Positions 6,844 through 41,332 of a stretch of 64,000 nucleotides of DNA are shown one piece after another. Both the position numbers and the translations under genes were made by a program. The notes beneath the pieces are model-generated. The model was not told the origin of the DNA. It saw only the letters and a program-made list of their open reading frames with translations, and did not search any database. The stretch is from Methanoculleus chikugoensis (GTDB taxonomy: Archaea > Halobacteriota > Methanomicrobia > Methanomicrobiales > Methanoculleaceae). The stretch is from positions 62,001 to 126,000 of the forward strand of contig NZ_FMID01000024.1 in NCBI RefSeq assembly GCF_900095385.1. Reading direction: 5' to 3'. Positions within the stretch are counted from its first letter, which is position 1. Each line of letters begins with the position of its first letter.

Positions 6844-7656
6844 CTAACCGTCACTACGGAGGCGGATATCGGAACGGATGCTGATCTTGCATTGCCCGTC
6901 CCTGAAGATGCGCACCATGCCTCCGCTCTCGGAGACCGTGATGCCGATGACCGGGATCTCGTGGGTGATGGATGCGGTCGCGCGGTGCCGCCCCCCGAGA
7001 CCCCCGGGGAGAGAGATGCCCCGCCCGGTGACGTCCAGGTAGCGGCCCGCCGCCCGCACCTCGCCGGTCTTATCGATGACGAAGACGCCGTCGAGCTGGG
7101 CGAACTCTTTGACGCTCTCCCAGTTGTCCCGGTTCTTGAGGTCCCGGAGTGTTCCGGGCTGCCCCTGGTAGGGGTTGAGGATCGCCTGGTGGGAGTGCCG
7201 GAAGATCTCCTCCGGGTCTCCTATGATGAACGCGGTGCCGATGGCTCTCCCTTCCCTCCCCTCGACCGCGATCTCGAGGGCGAGCGAGAGAGCCGCGTGG
7301 AGCACCTCGCGGGGGACGATGTCGGAGAAGTCTTTGAGGTTGATGAAGTTCTTCCCTTCCTCGATGTCGTAGAGGATGACGGCGTAGGGGAAGACGCCGA
7401 CGACGAGGCCGGTCTCCAGGTTGCGCCGGAGGTAGAGGTGGACGGCGGCGTCGAGCATGTGCCGCTCGCTCACCTCCAGGATATCGTGCATGGTGAGGTC
7501 TTTCAAGACGTCGAGCTGGAGTTCCTGCACCCGGATGATCGGAATATCGGGCACCTTTGCGAGAACCGGGGCCGGTTCGATGAACGAGACGACCGCCCGC
7601 GCCCCGATCTTCTCCGCCACGTCGCAGGCGGTTGCGAGCATCAGGTCGCCGTTCAT
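6844..7656 (-). CDS. dacZ: Archaeal diadenylate cyclase (c-di-AMP synthase)
   Basis: A 270-residue protein with a C-terminal DisA_N/DAC domain that joins two ATP molecules into cyclic di-AMP. The RHR motif is at residues 223-225 in GGLGGRHRATASIT, and the partner motif is DGV (residues 189-191) in place of the usual DGA, a conservative change. The N-terminal 120 residues match the archaeal DacZ architecture (former DUF147). The ATG overlaps the sucD stop by four bases, so it is translationally coupled to TCA genes. In other archaea and bacteria c-di-AMP controls K+ uptake and osmotic balance; a Kdp system is encoded 30 kb away. Confidence 0.9.
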   Translation of the reverse strand: MNGDLMLATACDVAEKIGARAVVSFIEPAPVLAKVPDIPIIRVQELQLDVLKDLTMHDILEVSERHMLDAAVHLYLRRNLETGLVVGVFPYAVILYDIEEGKNFINLKDFSDIVPREVLHAALSLALEIAVEGREGRAIGTAFIIGDPEEIFRHSHQAILNPYQGQPGTLRDLKNRDNWESVKEFAQLDGVFVIDKTGEVRAAGRYLDVTGRGISLPGGLGGRHRATASITHEIPVIGITVSESGGMVRIFRDGQCKISIRSDIRLRSDG

Positions 7657-33366: not shown

Positions 33367-33422
33367 TATTGTCCTGGCAATTGGAAATGTTTTTTATACT
33401 CGTTCCCTCTCATTTAGATATA

Positions 33423-34895
33423 GTGCATCCCCTCACGAACCCGGATCATATCCTCTACGTGGACGACGAAGAGGCGCTGCTTGAGATTGGCCGTGCCTTC
33501 CTCGAGCGAACGGGCGACATCACCGTCGATATAACCTCAAGCCCGCTGGAGGCATGCGAAACGATCATAACCGGCCGGTACGACGCGGTCGTCTCGGACT
33601 ACATGATGCCGGAGATGGATGGGATTGCTCTCTTACAGCATGTCCGGGAGGCAGGGTCCCGGGTGCCCTTCATCATCTTCACCGGCAGGGGACGCGAGGA
33701 AGTGGCAATCGAGGCGCTGAACAGCGGTGCCGACTTCTACCTCCAGAAAGGCGGCGACCCGAGGGCTCAGTTTGCCGATCTTGCCAATGCGATCCGGCAA
33801 CTGACCGGGAGGCGGCGGGCGGAAGCGGCACTGCGCAAGAGTGAAGAGATGCTGCACAGAGCGGAGAGCATCTTCCGTGCCGCCCCCGCCGGTATCGGAA
33901 TGGCTGTTGACGGGGTCGTCATGGAGGTCAACGAACGGCTCTGCGATATTCTCGGCTACACCCGCGATGAACTTGTTGGTCAGTCCATGCGGCTGCTGTA
34001 TCCGGGCGACGCGGAGCATGAATCCACACTGCGGCAGATGGACGTCCAGATCCGGAAGGCCGGAACGTGCACGCTTGAGACCCGCTGTATGCGCAAGGAC
34101 GGAGCGACTCTCGACGTGCAGTTCTCCAGCACACCCCTCGATCCGACGGATCATTCGCGCGGCATGACGTTTACGATTCTGGATATCAGCGAGCACACGG
34201 CGCTGGAGCGCGAGATCGCGTATCACGCCGAGGAGCTTGTCCGGCAGACGAACAGCCTCGCCGTCGCGAACAGGAAACTCAACCTGATGAGCAGCATCAC
34301 CCGACACGATATCCTGAACCAGCTGACGATCCTTCTCGGGAACCTCTGGATTGCAGAGGAGGCCGGGCCCGGCCAGGACATCTCGGAGTATCTTGCCCGG
34401 GTGCAGAGCGCAGCCGACAGGATACACCGTCAGATCGAGTTCACCCGGGACTACACGGATCTCGGCGTCCGGTCACCGGAGTGGCAGCGGGTCTCCGACG
34501 CGCTCGGGACCGGGACGCTTCAAGGGCTGCCGGTCGAGAACGAAGCCGGAGACCTTGTCGTCTACGCGGATCCGATGCTTGCGACGGTCTTTTCCAACCT
34601 GATGGACAACACGCTCCGGCACGGTGAGTCGGCGACCCGGGTCCGCGTCCGGTATCGTTCGGAGGAGAACGGAGATCTCATCCTCATCTGGGAGGACGAC
34701 GGCGCCGGTGTTCCTGCCGGGGAGAAGGAGCGGATCTTTCACCGGGGCGTCGGGAAGAACACGGGGCTCGGCCTCTTCCTGATCCGGGAGATCCTCGCGA
34801 TCACCGGGATCGGCATCGCCGAAACGGGCGAGCCCGGGAAGGGAGCACGGTTCGAGATGCGGGTGCCCCCCGGGGCATACCGGGTTCCGGAGTGA
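33423..34895 (+). CDS. Receiver-PAS-histidine kinase hybrid
   Basis: A 490-residue cytoplasmic signalling protein: an N-terminal receiver domain (acidic pocket VDDEE, phospho-acceptor D59 in VVSDYMMPEMDG, K109 in YLQKGG), a PAS domain (about 150-265), a phospho-acceptor helix with H295 in SITRHDILNQL and a C-terminal ATPase domain (N396 in NLMDNTLRHG, WEDDGAGVP, GLGLFLIREI). I prefer the GTG at 33423 over ATG 33369 because TTTTTATAC at about 33390-33400 is 25 bases upstream, giving a leaderless message. No transmembrane segments. It converges with the kdpD-like gene 128 bases away. Confidence 0.88.
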   Translation: MHPLTNPDHILYVDDEEALLEIGRAFLERTGDITVDITSSPLEACETIITGRYDAVVSDYMMPEMDGIALLQHVREAGSRVPFIIFTGRGREEVAIEALNSGADFYLQKGGDPRAQFADLANAIRQLTGRRRAEAALRKSEEMLHRAESIFRAAPAGIGMAVDGVVMEVNERLCDILGYTRDELVGQSMRLLYPGDAEHESTLRQMDVQIRKAGTCTLETRCMRKDGATLDVQFSSTPLDPTDHSRGMTFTILDISEHTALEREIAYHAEELVRQTNSLAVANRKLNLMSSITRHDILNQLTILLGNLWIAEEAGPGQDISEYLARVQSAADRIHRQIEFTRDYTDLGVRSPEWQRVSDALGTGTLQGLPVENEAGDLVVYADPMLATVFSNLMDNTLRHGESATRVRVRYRSEENGDLILIWEDDGAGVPAGEKERIFHRGVGKNTGLGLFLIREILAITGIGIAETGEPGKGARFEMRVPPGAYRVPE

Positions 34896-35022: not shown

Positions 35023-36957
35023 TCAATCTACCTCTTCCAGGGCCAGGGCCCCCAGGTATGCCATCGTCTGGAGGACATCCTTATTCTCCGGTGTAAGCAC
35101 CTCCTCCGGGTCCCTGAATGCGAACGCCAGGACGCCGAACGTAACCGCAAACGCCTTCATCGGAACGTAGTGCCCTATCCCCATCGGGAGCGTTTCGGTG
35201 CCTCTCCCCGCTGTCCGGCCATTCTCGAAGGCCCACTGGGCGATAGTCCGCTCTTTTTGGGTGAGCGGATAATCGGGATCCCCGACGTTCACGAAGAGCC
35301 CCCCCGCACCCGGCGTGAGAACGGCAAATGCACCTTCGCCGAACTGCTTCATGTGACGATAGAGCGTATCGAAGATCTCCCGGCGGTGCGCGACGTTCAC
35401 CAGATCGCGGGAGAGGACGGCGACGGCCTCAACCTTTGCCTCGCTCCTCCGTATCTGCGGGAGCAGGTAGCGGAGTCTTGTTGCGAGACCGCTGATGATG
35501 AACGCAATGACCACGTATCCCACAAACGAGATGAAGTAATCCCAGTCGTCGATCGTAAGCGTGTAGTAGGGAACGACAAAAGCGAAGTCGAAGATCAGGA
35601 TGCTTGCGATAGCGGTGATGATCGCCGTTCTCCGGCGGAATAAGAGCGCTGCCGCCACCACCGGAACCAACTGGATGATGAGCAGGTTTGACGAACTGAT
35701 GACATTTCGCAGGAAGTAATTTACGATCGTCACAAGCGCGATGAGTATTGCGCTGATGATGAGGTTTAGACTCACAAATTGCGGCAGTTGCCTGTGGATA
35801 GGGATACTTACCGCCGCTTTCGGTTCGTAGAGGAAGATGTCGATCCCCTTTGACCGGACCATGGTGCGGTACACGGGAGAGTAGAAGATGTCCAGTCCGC
35901 GGGGTTTACCGAGCATGATCATGGTGACGTTGTGCTGCCGGGCATACCTGATCAGTTCCCCCGGAACGTCCCCTCCGCGGTAACGGACGATCCGCCCTCC
36001 GAGGCTCCTTGCCGTCTCCATTGCATCGTTGAGCCACCGTCGCTCCTGGTCCGTGAGGTTCTGCTCAGTCTCGGTCCCGATGGAGATCACGATCCAGTCC
36101 GCATGGAACCTGTCTGCAAGGCGGTACGCCGCACGGACCATCTGGTCCGCCGTCGGGCCGGGGCGTATCCCCACGAGGAGCCGTTCCCCGGCAGGCCATG
36201 GCCCCGGGATGGCCCTGGCCCGCATGCGGGTGAGCATCTGCCGGTCGGTGACCTGCGCCATGAACCGGAGAGCGATCTGCCGGAGTGCCAGGAGATTTTC
36301 GACGCTGAAGAACCGCTGGGCGGCCTGCTCGGCCATATCCCGCACATAGACCTTTCCGGCGCGGAGGCGGAGTTGGAGTTCCTCCGGCGGGATGTCTATC
36401 AGGCAGATCTCGTCGGCATCGTAGAAGAACGTGTCCGGCACCGTCTCCGCGACGCGGATGCCCGTGATCTGGGCGACGATGTCGTTCTGGCTCTCGATGT
36501 GCTGGATATTGACGGTGGTGTAGACCGATATCCCCGCGTGAAGGATCTCCTCGATGTCCTGGTAGCGTTTGGCGTGCCGGCTCCCCGGAGCATCGGTGTG
36601 CGCAAGCTCGTCGATGAGGACGATCTGCGGGCGTCGCCTGAGGATCGCGTCGATATCCGGCTCCCGCAATGCGAGTCCCTGGTAATCGACGTGAATCGGG
36701 GGGATTGCCTCGAGCCTTGCGGCGAGTGCATCCGTCTCTGCCCTGCCGTGCGTCTCCACATACCCGATCACGGTATCGAGCCCGTCGCTCCGGTGGCTGA
36801 GCGCATCCTCCAGCATCGTGTAGGTCTTCCCGACGCCGGCGGCGTATCCCAGGTAGATCGTCAGCTGCCCTTTCCCGACCCTCTGTTCCGCCTGCTCTGC
36901 AACGGCGAGCAGGTCTTCGGGCAGGGGGCGGCCTTCCTCGGCGGTCCTTTCAGCCGT
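35023..36957 (-). CDS. KdpD-like sensor without kinase domain (start codon is non-standard)
   Basis: About 644 residues: the KdpD N-terminal domain with Walker A GYAAGVGKTYTMLE (residues 38-51 when counted from 36957) and VETHGRAET, a Usp domain (LLVGIRPGPTADQMVRAA), four transmembrane helices (DUF4118) and a GAF-like C-terminus. There is no HisKA/HATPase, as in other archaeal KdpD relatives. The first ATG (36816) would remove the Walker A motif. Upstream in frame to the stop there is no ATG, GTG or TTG; an ACG at 36957 lies 6-8 bases after AGGAGGGG and would read ACG-GCT-GAA-AGG, so it is the likely initiation site or a mutated ATG. It follows kdpC by overlapping signals. Confidence 0.85.
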   Translation of the reverse strand, partial: TAERTAEEGRPLPEDLLAVAEQAEQRVGKGQLTIYLGYAAGVGKTYTMLEDALSHRSDGLDTVIGYVETHGRAETDALAARLEAIPPIHVDYQGLALREPDIDAILRRRPQIVLIDELAHTDAPGSRHAKRYQDIEEILHAGISVYTTVNIQHIESQNDIVAQITGIRVAETVPDTFFYDADEICLIDIPPEELQLRLRAGKVYVRDMAEQAAQRFFSVENLLALRQIALRFMAQVTDRQMLTRMRARAIPGPWPAGERLLVGIRPGPTADQMVRAAYRLADRFHADWIVISIGTETEQNLTDQERRWLNDAMETARSLGGRIVRYRGGDVPGELIRYARQHNVTMIMLGKPRGLDIFYSPVYRTMVRSKGIDIFLYEPKAAVSIPIHRQLPQFVSLNLIISAILIALVTIVNYFLRNVISSSNLLIIQLVPVVAAALLFRRRTAIITAIASILIFDFAFVVPYYTLTIDDWDYFISFVGYVVIAFIISGLATRLRYLLPQIRRSEAKVEAVAVLSRDLVNVAHRREIFDTLYRHMKQFGEGAFAVLTPGAGGLFVNVGDPDYPLTQKERTIAQWAFENGRTAGRGTETLPMGIGHYVPMKAFAVTFGVLAFAFRDPEEVLTPENKDVLQTMAYLGALALEEVD

Positions 36958-36959
36958 GT

Positions 36960-37544
36960 TCAGCCCCTCCTGTCCAGGCGATCCAGCTCACGGTTGAGCG
37001 AGAGGACATTGACGTAGGGTTCTACGAACGGAACCGGGAGGCTCTCCGCCCGGGCGAGAACGAGTGCACGGACCTCGTCCTCCGGAAGACCGCGCGCCTC
37101 TGCGACGGCGGGGACCTGCACCAGTGCGGCATCCAGGCTGATGTCGGGGTCCAGACCGCTTCCCGAAGCCATGACGAGATCGGACGGGAGCGGCCCCTGC
37201 ACGCCGGTGTTCCGGAGAGCCCTCACCCGTTCCGCGATACGTTCGAGGAGCAGGGGATTTCCGGGTGCAAGGTTCGACCCTCCGGAGGAGGAGGCGTTGT
37301 AGGCGGTGATCGGCGTCTCTGAGGGGCGGCCCTGAAAGTAGAACGGTGCGCTGAAGTTCTGGCCGATCAGGCTCGAGCCGATCACCTGGCCCTGGCCGTC
37401 GATTATCAGGCTCCCGTGGGCCTGGTACGGAAATGCCGCCCCGGCGATGAGCGTCACTGCCAGGGGGTAGGCGAACCCCGTGATGATGAAGAGGACGAGG
37501 AAGAGGAGGAGACCGCTTTTTACTGCCTGTCGTATCTCCGTCAT
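36960..37544 (-). CDS. kdpC: Potassium-transporting ATPase, subunit C
   Basis: The 194-residue KdpC subunit has one N-terminal transmembrane helix (LLLFLVLFIITGFAYPLAVT) and the conserved QNFSAPFYFQGRPSET segment and ENP-like tail (PDISLDAALVQVPAVAEARG). KdpC is an inhibitor-like chaperone of ATP binding in the KdpFABC K+ pump. It sits between kdpB (13 bases upstream) and the kdpD-like gene. No kdpF is evident. Confidence 0.95.
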   Translation of the reverse strand: MTEIRQAVKSGLLLFLVLFIITGFAYPLAVTLIAGAAFPYQAHGSLIIDGQGQVIGSSLIGQNFSAPFYFQGRPSETPITAYNASSSGGSNLAPGNPLLLERIAERVRALRNTGVQGPLPSDLVMASGSGLDPDISLDAALVQVPAVAEARGLPEDEVRALVLARAESLPVPFVEPYVNVLSLNRELDRLDRRG

Positions 37545-39625: not shown

Positions 39626-41332
39626 CTACCCGCCTCCGGACAACAACAGGTGGTCGACGATCGGCCCCATGGCGAAGAGGGGGAAGAACGTGAGCGCCCC
39701 GACGATCAGGATCACCAGGATCGTCCAGACGGTGAACGTTGCCGATGCTGTGGGCAGGGTCCCCGGTCCCGGTGGGACCGTCTTTTTCTGCGCTATCGAC
39801 CCGGCGAGGGCAAGCATCGCAACCGCCGGGACGAACCGCCCGATGGTCATTGCCGCGGCGCCGGCAAGCGCATAAAAGATCCCTGAAGCGTCGAATCCGG
39901 CAAACGCGCTCCCGTTGTTGTTGGACATGGAGGCAAACGTGTAGACGAGTTCGGAGAGGCCGTGCGGACCGGGGTTGTGCATCGCTCCGGCCGTCCCGGG
40001 AAGGAACAGCGCGACCCCCGTGAGGATGAGGACGAGGACGCCCGGCACCAGAACCGTGAGAACGGCCATGCGCATCTCCTGGACCTCGATCTTCTTTCCG
40101 AGGTACTCGGGAGTTCTTCCGATCATCAGCCCGGCGATGAAGACGGCGACCACGATAAACCCGATAACGGTGTAGAACCCCGATCCCACCCCGCCGAAGG
40201 CGACCTCGCCGAGCAGGATCAGGAGCATCGGCACCATGCCTGCAATCGGCATGAAGGAATCGAACATGGCGTTGACCGCCCCGCAGGACGTTGCGGTGGT
40301 GGAGGCGGCAAAGAGGGCGGTGCCGCCGAGCCCGAAGCGGACTTCTTTTCCTTCCATCGAGATCCCGGTCACGTCGAGCTGCCCCATGAGCGGGTTGCCG
40401 TCCAGCTCGGCAACGTAGAGGGTGCCGAGGGCGGGGAGGTAGATCGCGAGCATGACTATGTAGATGGCCCATCCCTGCCGCATGGACCCGGCCATCCGCC
40501 CGAAGACAAAGGGTAGCGAGACCGGGATCAGGAGGATCAGAAAGATCTCCACGAGGTTGGTGAACGGTGTCGGGTTCTCGTAGGGGTGGGCGGAGTTGGC
40601 GTTGAAGAACCCGCCCCCGTTCGTGCCGAACTCCTTGACGGCTTCCTGGGAGGCGACAGGCCCCATGGCGATCGTCTGCGGTCCGGCCGGACCGTACCCT
40701 GCGGCATGCACGTAGGGGTCGACGTTCTGGATGACCCCCTGCGAGACGAGCAGGAGGGCGGCGAGAAATGCAACCGGGATGAGGATGTAGAGGACGCACC
40801 GGGTCACGTCCACCCGGAAGTTGCCGATCCGGTCGGTCGACCGGCGGGTGACTCCCCGCATCACCGCGATAGCGATGCAGATCCCGGTGGCGGGCGAGAG
40901 GAAATTCTGGACCGTAAAGCCGGCCATCTGGGTCAGGTAACTCGCGGAGGCTTCCCCTGCATATATCTGGTAGTTGGTGTTGGTGACGAAGCTCGCCGCC
41001 GTATGGAGTGCCGTGCCGGGGTCGAATGCGCCGAAGCCTTCCGGGTTCAGCGGCAGGTAACCCTGCAGCAGGAGAAGCGCGAGGAGTGCGATAAACCCGA
41101 TGCCGTTGAAGATGAGCATCTCCCGTGCGTATCCCATCCAGTCTTCCTCCTCGCCGGCAGACGTGCCGATGAAGCGAAAGAGCCGGGCCTCCAGCGTCCC
41201 GGGGATGCCGCGGGAGTAGTCCCCGGAGAACACGTGCCCCATGTACCGGCCAAAGAGCACCCCTGCGATGGTGACTGCTATGAAGAACGCGATGAAGAGT
41301 AACCCGTCGAGGAGCGGTGCAGGTTGTGCCAT
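39626..41332 (-). CDS. kdpA: Potassium-transporting ATPase, subunit A
   Basis: KdpA is the K+ channel-like subunit related to Trk/Ktr. The 568-residue protein has about ten transmembrane segments and selectivity-filter-like segments with repeated TNxGG-type loops ([57 protein letters not shown]). It is the first gene of kdpABC. Such operons are induced by K+ limitation. A TATA box lies about 50 bases upstream. Confidence 0.96.

What the first reader, a model, noticed from the sequence alone, without database searches (positions are those of the whole stretch)
36816..36974. KdpD-like gene has no ATG/GTG/TTG before its Walker A motif
The frame is open back to 36957 and beyond and encodes the Walker A GYAAGVGKT region, but the first standard start is ATG 36816, which would delete it. 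An ACG at 36957 follows AGGAGGGG at the right distance and reads like ATG-GCT-GAA with one base changed. This is either a rare ACG start, a start-codon mutation that lowers the sensor level, or a sequencing error.
Basis: seen in the sequence. Interest (0 to 1): 0.6.

Follow-up and report, generated by a model that had tools for sequence, protein, structure and literature searches.

The report
Conserved ACG start of archaeal kdpD
In a group of related methane-producing archaea (Methanoculleus), the gene for a potassium-pump regulator has no normal start codon in six separate species, and every one carries the same ACG where relatives have ATG, so the cell very probably starts this protein at a codon that textbooks do not count as a start.

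Summary
The kdpD-like frame (35023-36987, minus strand) has no ATG/GTG/TTG before its Walker A motif. ACG 36957 lies 2 nt after the kdpC stop and 8 nt after a GGAGG that matches this genome's own 16S 3' end. The only five other Methanoculleus genomes in the set with a close kdpD (91-97% identical) also lack a standard start and all carry ACG, with the same GGAGG and spacing. More distant archaeal orthologs have ATG at the matching place. The ACG genes form one well-supported clade, so ATG was probably lost once, before these species split. The gene stayed functional: 644 codons intact, dN/dS 0.15, and the 46 codons between ACG and the first ATG are under purifying selection (17 synonymous versus 6 nonsynonymous variable sites, p = 3e-6). 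Best explanation: translation starts at ACG by SD-assisted, kdpC-coupled initiation, making a histidine-kinase-less KdpD that probably acts as a serine kinase on KdpB, for which Walker A is essential. CTG 36963, overlapping the kdpC stop, is the main rival start. The start codon itself needs N-terminal proteomics. Lower expression of the regulator is plausible but untested.

The parts
36955..36957 (-). ACG, probable start codon of the kdpD-like gene
   Evidence: ACG in all six genomes of the clade; same position as ATG in outgroups
36964..36971 (-). Shine-Dalgarno AGGAGGGG (GGAGG core 36966-36970), 8 nt before ACG, inside the end of kdpC
   Evidence: anti-SD ATCACCTCCT in own 16S; GGAGG kept in all six
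36961..36963 (-). CTG in the kdpD frame overlapping the kdpC stop (CTGA); rival start, only 2 nt after GGAGG
   Evidence: also present in all six
35023..36957 (-). kdpD-like CDS, 644 codons plus stop: KdpD domain (36253-36873), Usp-like (35899-36183, below Pfam cut-off), DUF4118 (35449-35760), GAF (35035-35247, below Pfam cut-off); no HisKA or HATPase_c
36823..36849 (-). Walker A GYAAGVGKT (G-X5-GKT), upstream of the first standard start
36814..36816 (-). First ATG/GTG/TTG of the frame; a start here would lose the KdpD-domain N-terminus including Walker A
36960..37544 (-). kdpC; its stop is 2 nt before ACG
   Evidence: PF02669, 209 bits
37558..39621 (-). kdpB, with the TGES motif that carries the target serine in E. 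coli KdpB
39626..41332 (-). kdpA
   Evidence: PF03814, 712 bits

Best explanation
The kdpD-like gene is a functional, translated gene whose start codon changed from ATG to ACG once, in the common ancestor of at least six Methanoculleus species, and has stayed ACG. Ribosomes finishing kdpC stop at TGA 36962-36960 with GGAGG 36970-36966 under the 16S 3' end. That holds the small subunit over ACG 36957, 8 nt from the SD, where initiator tRNA-Met starts despite one mismatch. The product is a 644-residue KdpD without histidine kinase, probably a Walker-A-dependent serine kinase that shuts off KdpB when K+ or c-di-AMP is high, and probably made in small amounts relative to the pump. Shown here: the missing standard start, the conserved ACG and SD, the single ACG clade, and purifying selection on the N-terminus. 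Inferred: use of ACG, coupling, low level, and the kinase role.
For: ACG in 6 of 6 close orthologs and no ATG/GTG/TTG upstream of Walker A in any. GGAGG and the 8-nt spacing to ACG are unchanged in all six, while bases around them vary. Orthologs outside the clade have ATG about 33-37 codons before Walker A; ACG is 36 before, and the N-termini align (TAERTAEEGRPLPEDLL against MAPGEREEEGRPLPEDLL). In L024 and L025, grouped with the ACG clade at moderate support (89/81), ATG lies 1 nt after the kdpC TGA. The ACG genes are one clade, support 100/99. Codons 2-47: 17 synonymous and 6 nonsynonymous variable sites, p = 3e-6; whole-gene dN/dS 0.149, compared with 0.212 for kdpC in the same genomes; from Walker A on, 0.152 in the ACG clade and 0.234 in the ATG sister clade. 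In E. coli, Walker A is essential for KdpB-S162 phosphorylation while deletion of the HK domains is harmless to it (PMC11018627).
Against: ACG is a poor start in E. coli reporters: 0.1-1.5% relative efficiency for a group of codons including ACG (PMC6925171). No archaeal case of a natural ACG start turned up in the literature searched. CTG 36963 is equally conserved. No protein or ribosome-profiling data were available. The six genomes are close (dS up to 0.35), so conservation of the three bases alone is weak evidence.
Confidence: 0.72

Rival explanations
1. The start is CTG 36963, which overlaps the kdpC stop as CTGA, in the manner of the common ATGA overlap. ACG would then be an ordinary Thr codon.
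For: CTG is in frame and present in all six. One sister gene, L007, has an ATGA overlap. CTG has been proposed as an atypical start in Haloferax HVO_1510 (PMC8305020).
Against: Only 2 nt from GGAGG, against 8 for ACG. It is 38 codons before Walker A, outside the 33-37 of relatives. The CTG bases can be explained by the last kdpC codon plus its stop.
Confidence: 0.13
2. kdpD is made without its own start, as a kdpC-kdpD fusion, by -1 frameshifting at the end of kdpC.
For: The kdpD frame is open for 10 codons upstream of ACG in five of six genomes (more in L006), so a shift there would join the frames.
Against: No X-XXY-YYZ slippery heptamer, and the last kdpC codons change between genomes (AGG AGG GGC or GGG AGG GAC before TGA). 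A strong SD in place would be unexplained.
Confidence: 0.05
3. Translation starts at ATG 36816, giving a protein without Walker A (the annotation an automatic pipeline might choose).
For: First standard start in the frame.
Against: Codons 2-47 are under purifying selection (p = 3e-6), RPLPEDLL and Walker A are kept in orthologs, and the solved KdpD domain 2r8r begins with the strand before Walker A.
Confidence: 0.03
4. The gene is a decaying pseudogene that lost its start.
For: Loss of ATG; 23 of 35 genomes of the genus have no match at this threshold, so the gene is dispensable in the genus.
Against: Frame intact in six species, dN/dS 0.15, no relaxation compared with kdpC or the ATG clade.
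Confidence: 0.05
5. Sequencing or assembly error.
For: None found.
Against: Same ACG in an isolate (Methanoculleus sp. Afa-1) and in MAGs UBA430 and BL5_bin.18 from separate projects, and in further genomes.
Confidence: 0.005

Closest known systems
KdpD of the truncated-HK type with atypical serine kinase domain (PMC11018627)
   Same: KdpD domain with G-X5-GKT Walker A and DE Walker B, Usp-like region, DUF4118 membrane region and GAF-like region; DHpCA missing; encoded with kdpABC; no KdpE-type output domain found in the genome. The paper reports this form for Archaea.
   Different: The start codon is ACG. Kinase activity was not tested here.
Haloferax HVO_1510 ortholog set (PMC8305020)
   Same: Archaeal orthologs lacking ATG/GTG/TTG before a conserved N-terminus, with peptides upstream of the first alternative standard start in one species; atypical start proposed.
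   Different: There the candidate is CTG or slippage and the start region differs among orthologs; here one ACG with an SD is constant in six species.
ACG starts in eukaryotes, viruses and chloroplasts (Sendai virus P/C, cited in PMC9845219; chloroplast ACG edited to AUG)
   Same: ACG used, or edited to serve, as a start.
   Different: Different machinery; no C-to-U mRNA editing of this kind is known to me in archaea.

Membership tests
KdpD, truncated (HK-less) form | N-terminal KdpD domain PF02702 | tested here: met
   302.5 bits against cut-off 26.1
KdpD, truncated (HK-less) form | Walker A G-X5-GKT and Walker B DE | tested here: met
   GYAAGVGKT and VLIDELAH in the translation
KdpD, truncated (HK-less) form | Membrane region DUF4118 present, HisKA and HATPase_c absent | tested here: met
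   PF13493 74.4 bits; no HK domain; aligns to positions 3-644 of the 895-position PRK10490 model
KdpD, truncated (HK-less) form | KdpE absent | tested here: met
   No PF00486 in the own genome, with positive controls
KdpD, truncated (HK-less) form | Phosphorylates the KdpB TGES serine | not testable with these tools
   TGES motif is present in kdpB
NCBIfam NF038185 KdpD-like non-kinase potassium sensor | Score above curated cut-off 550 | tested here: not met
   333.9 bits; that model covers a shorter 373-position form
Genes with non-AUG/GUG/UUG start codon | No standard start compatible with the conserved protein | tested here: met
   Six genomes
Genes with non-AUG/GUG/UUG start codon | SD at proper spacing to the proposed codon | tested here: met
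   GGAGG 8 nt before ACG; 16S 3' end checked
Genes with non-AUG/GUG/UUG start codon | Protein N-terminus maps to the codon | not testable with these tools
   No proteomic data

The most novel reading that the evidence does not exclude
A natural ACG start codon in archaea, fixed in a clade and kept by selection as a built-in brake that sets the dose of the KdpB-inactivating kinase far below that of the pump, working through termination-reinitiation at the kdpC stop.
Probability: 0.3. Interest if true: 0.7.

Novelty: new variant of a known kind. Interest (0 to 1): 0.52.

Why it matters
Gene finders assume ATG/GTG/TTG, and in these species they would truncate the kinase at 36816, losing the catalytic P-loop, or call it broken. 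A clade-wide ACG start with intact selection gives a clean natural test of how loosely archaeal ribosomes choose start codons, and of whether operon coupling lets them use codons that fail in isolation. It also suggests a way to keep a regulator scarce inside a polycistronic pump operon.

Tried and rejected
Sequencing error: rejected by five other genomes. Pseudogene: rejected by dN/dS. Frameshift fusion: no slippery site. A local scan of 145 open frames in the window that have at least 30 codons before a standard start left kdpD and four others with third-position-dominated change. Those four have no Pfam match and overlap or oppose other long ORFs, so they look like shadow frames. SD-spacing statistics over the window were too noisy to use. 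One alignment call included a wrongly placed stretch of L001, and that row was not used. Literature searches for ACG starts in archaea found no case. The Hecht 64-codon paper and the Deinococcus non-canonical start paper are not in the library.

Full report
Observation. On the minus strand the kdpC-kdpD junction reads GACAGGAGGGGCTGAACACGGCTGAAAGG. kdpC ends with TGA 36962-36960. The kdpD frame is open from 36987 to its stop at 35023, and its first ATG, GTG or TTG is ATG 36816. Walker A GYAAGVGKT lies at 36849-36823, upstream of that ATG. ACG 36957 is 47 codons upstream of ATG 36816 and in frame. GGAGG 36970-36966 is 8 nt before ACG, and the 16S rRNA gene of the same genome ends in ATCACCTCCT.

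Relatives. Among 35 genomes of the genus, 12 have a kdpD match; records among the close hits name it as Methanoculleus. The five closest besides the window's own (91-97% amino-acid identity) have no standard start before Walker A, and all have ACG at the same place, with GGAGG at the same spacing. They include an isolate (Afa-1) and MAGs from other projects, so sequencing error is excluded. The next relatives, at 63-71% identity, have ATG: L007, L008, L009, L019, L020, L024 and L025. The fragmented G020 gene also has ATG there (L017). In L019 the ATG is exactly 36 codons before Walker A, as is the ACG. In L024 and L025 it lies 1 nt after the kdpC stop. More distant orthologs of the same order (L010-L012) have ATG as well. 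A tree puts the six ACG genes in one clade (support 100/99), grouped with L024 and L025 at moderate support (89/81), with all ATG genes outside. The simplest history is one ATG-to-ACG change on the stem.

Is the gene alive, and is the region before ATG 36816 translated? All six frames are intact at 644 codons. Mean dN/dS is 0.149 over the gene, compared with 0.212 for kdpC in the same genomes. From Walker A on it is 0.152 in the ACG clade and 0.234 in the ATG sister clade. In codons 2-47 there are 17 synonymous and 6 nonsynonymous variable sites, where neutrality predicts about 1 to 3 (p = 3e-6). The region is therefore read as protein, and ATG 36816 is not the main start. The p-value uses site patterns across the six genomes, not pairwise counts, so shared ancestry is not counted many times over.

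Which codon starts? Only three codons between the upstream end of the SD and the conserved RPLPEDLL differ from ATG by one base in the window: CTG 36963, ACG 36957 and AGG 36948 or thereabouts (read). ACG has the right SD spacing and the right place relative to the ATG of relatives. CTG is 2 nt from GGAGG. Conservation of ACG alone is not decisive, because 65% of fourfold codons and 23 of 31 Thr codons are identical in the six. I give ACG 0.72 and CTG 0.13.

What the protein does. The domain content is KdpD, Usp-like, DUF4118 and GAF-like, without HisKA or HATPase_c. No KdpE-type output domain was found in the genome. A diadenylate cyclase is present on the same contig. This is the truncated archaeal form discussed in PMC11018627, where the KdpD domain of E. 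coli is shown to be a serine kinase that inactivates KdpB, with Walker A essential and the HK part not needed. The kdpB here has the TGES motif. So the residues that a start at ATG 36816 would delete are the catalytic ones. That this archaeal protein is such a kinase is inferred, not shown.

Mechanism. The SD lies within the last codons of kdpC and the stop is 2 nt before ACG, so a terminating ribosome is already placed for reinitiation. ACG is weak in E. coli reporters (PMC6925171), so low output is likely unless coupling compensates. A low dose of an inactivating kinase relative to its pump would make sense, but relatives with ATG show it is not required. Tolerated weakness is as likely as a selected brake.

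Novelty. Non-standard starts in archaea have been suggested, for example for HVO_1510 of Haloferax (PMC8305020), and a review names AUG, GUG and UUG as archaeal start codons (PMC7531240). I found no report of a conserved archaeal ACG start in the open-access library, which does not hold most subscription papers.

Noticed in passing
window 6892-7272, minus strand: Diadenylate cyclase domain (PF02457, 65.6 bits) on the same contig as the kdp operon; c-di-AMP stimulates the HK-less KdpD of Deinococcus geothermalis in PMC11018627.
   Followed up: partly
window 33369-34895, plus strand: Response regulator-PAS-histidine kinase hybrid, convergent with the HK-less kdpD.
   Followed up: partly
window 36913-36997, minus strand: The SD of kdpD is predicted to pair with the C-rich codons of RPLPED in four of six genomes; may only reflect G/C-rich composition, but would fit opening by ribosomes translating kdpC.
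   Followed up: partly
genus-wide: Only 12 of 35 genomes of the genus have a kdpD match, so it is patchily present; in G020 it is split over two open frames on a short contig.
   Followed up: no
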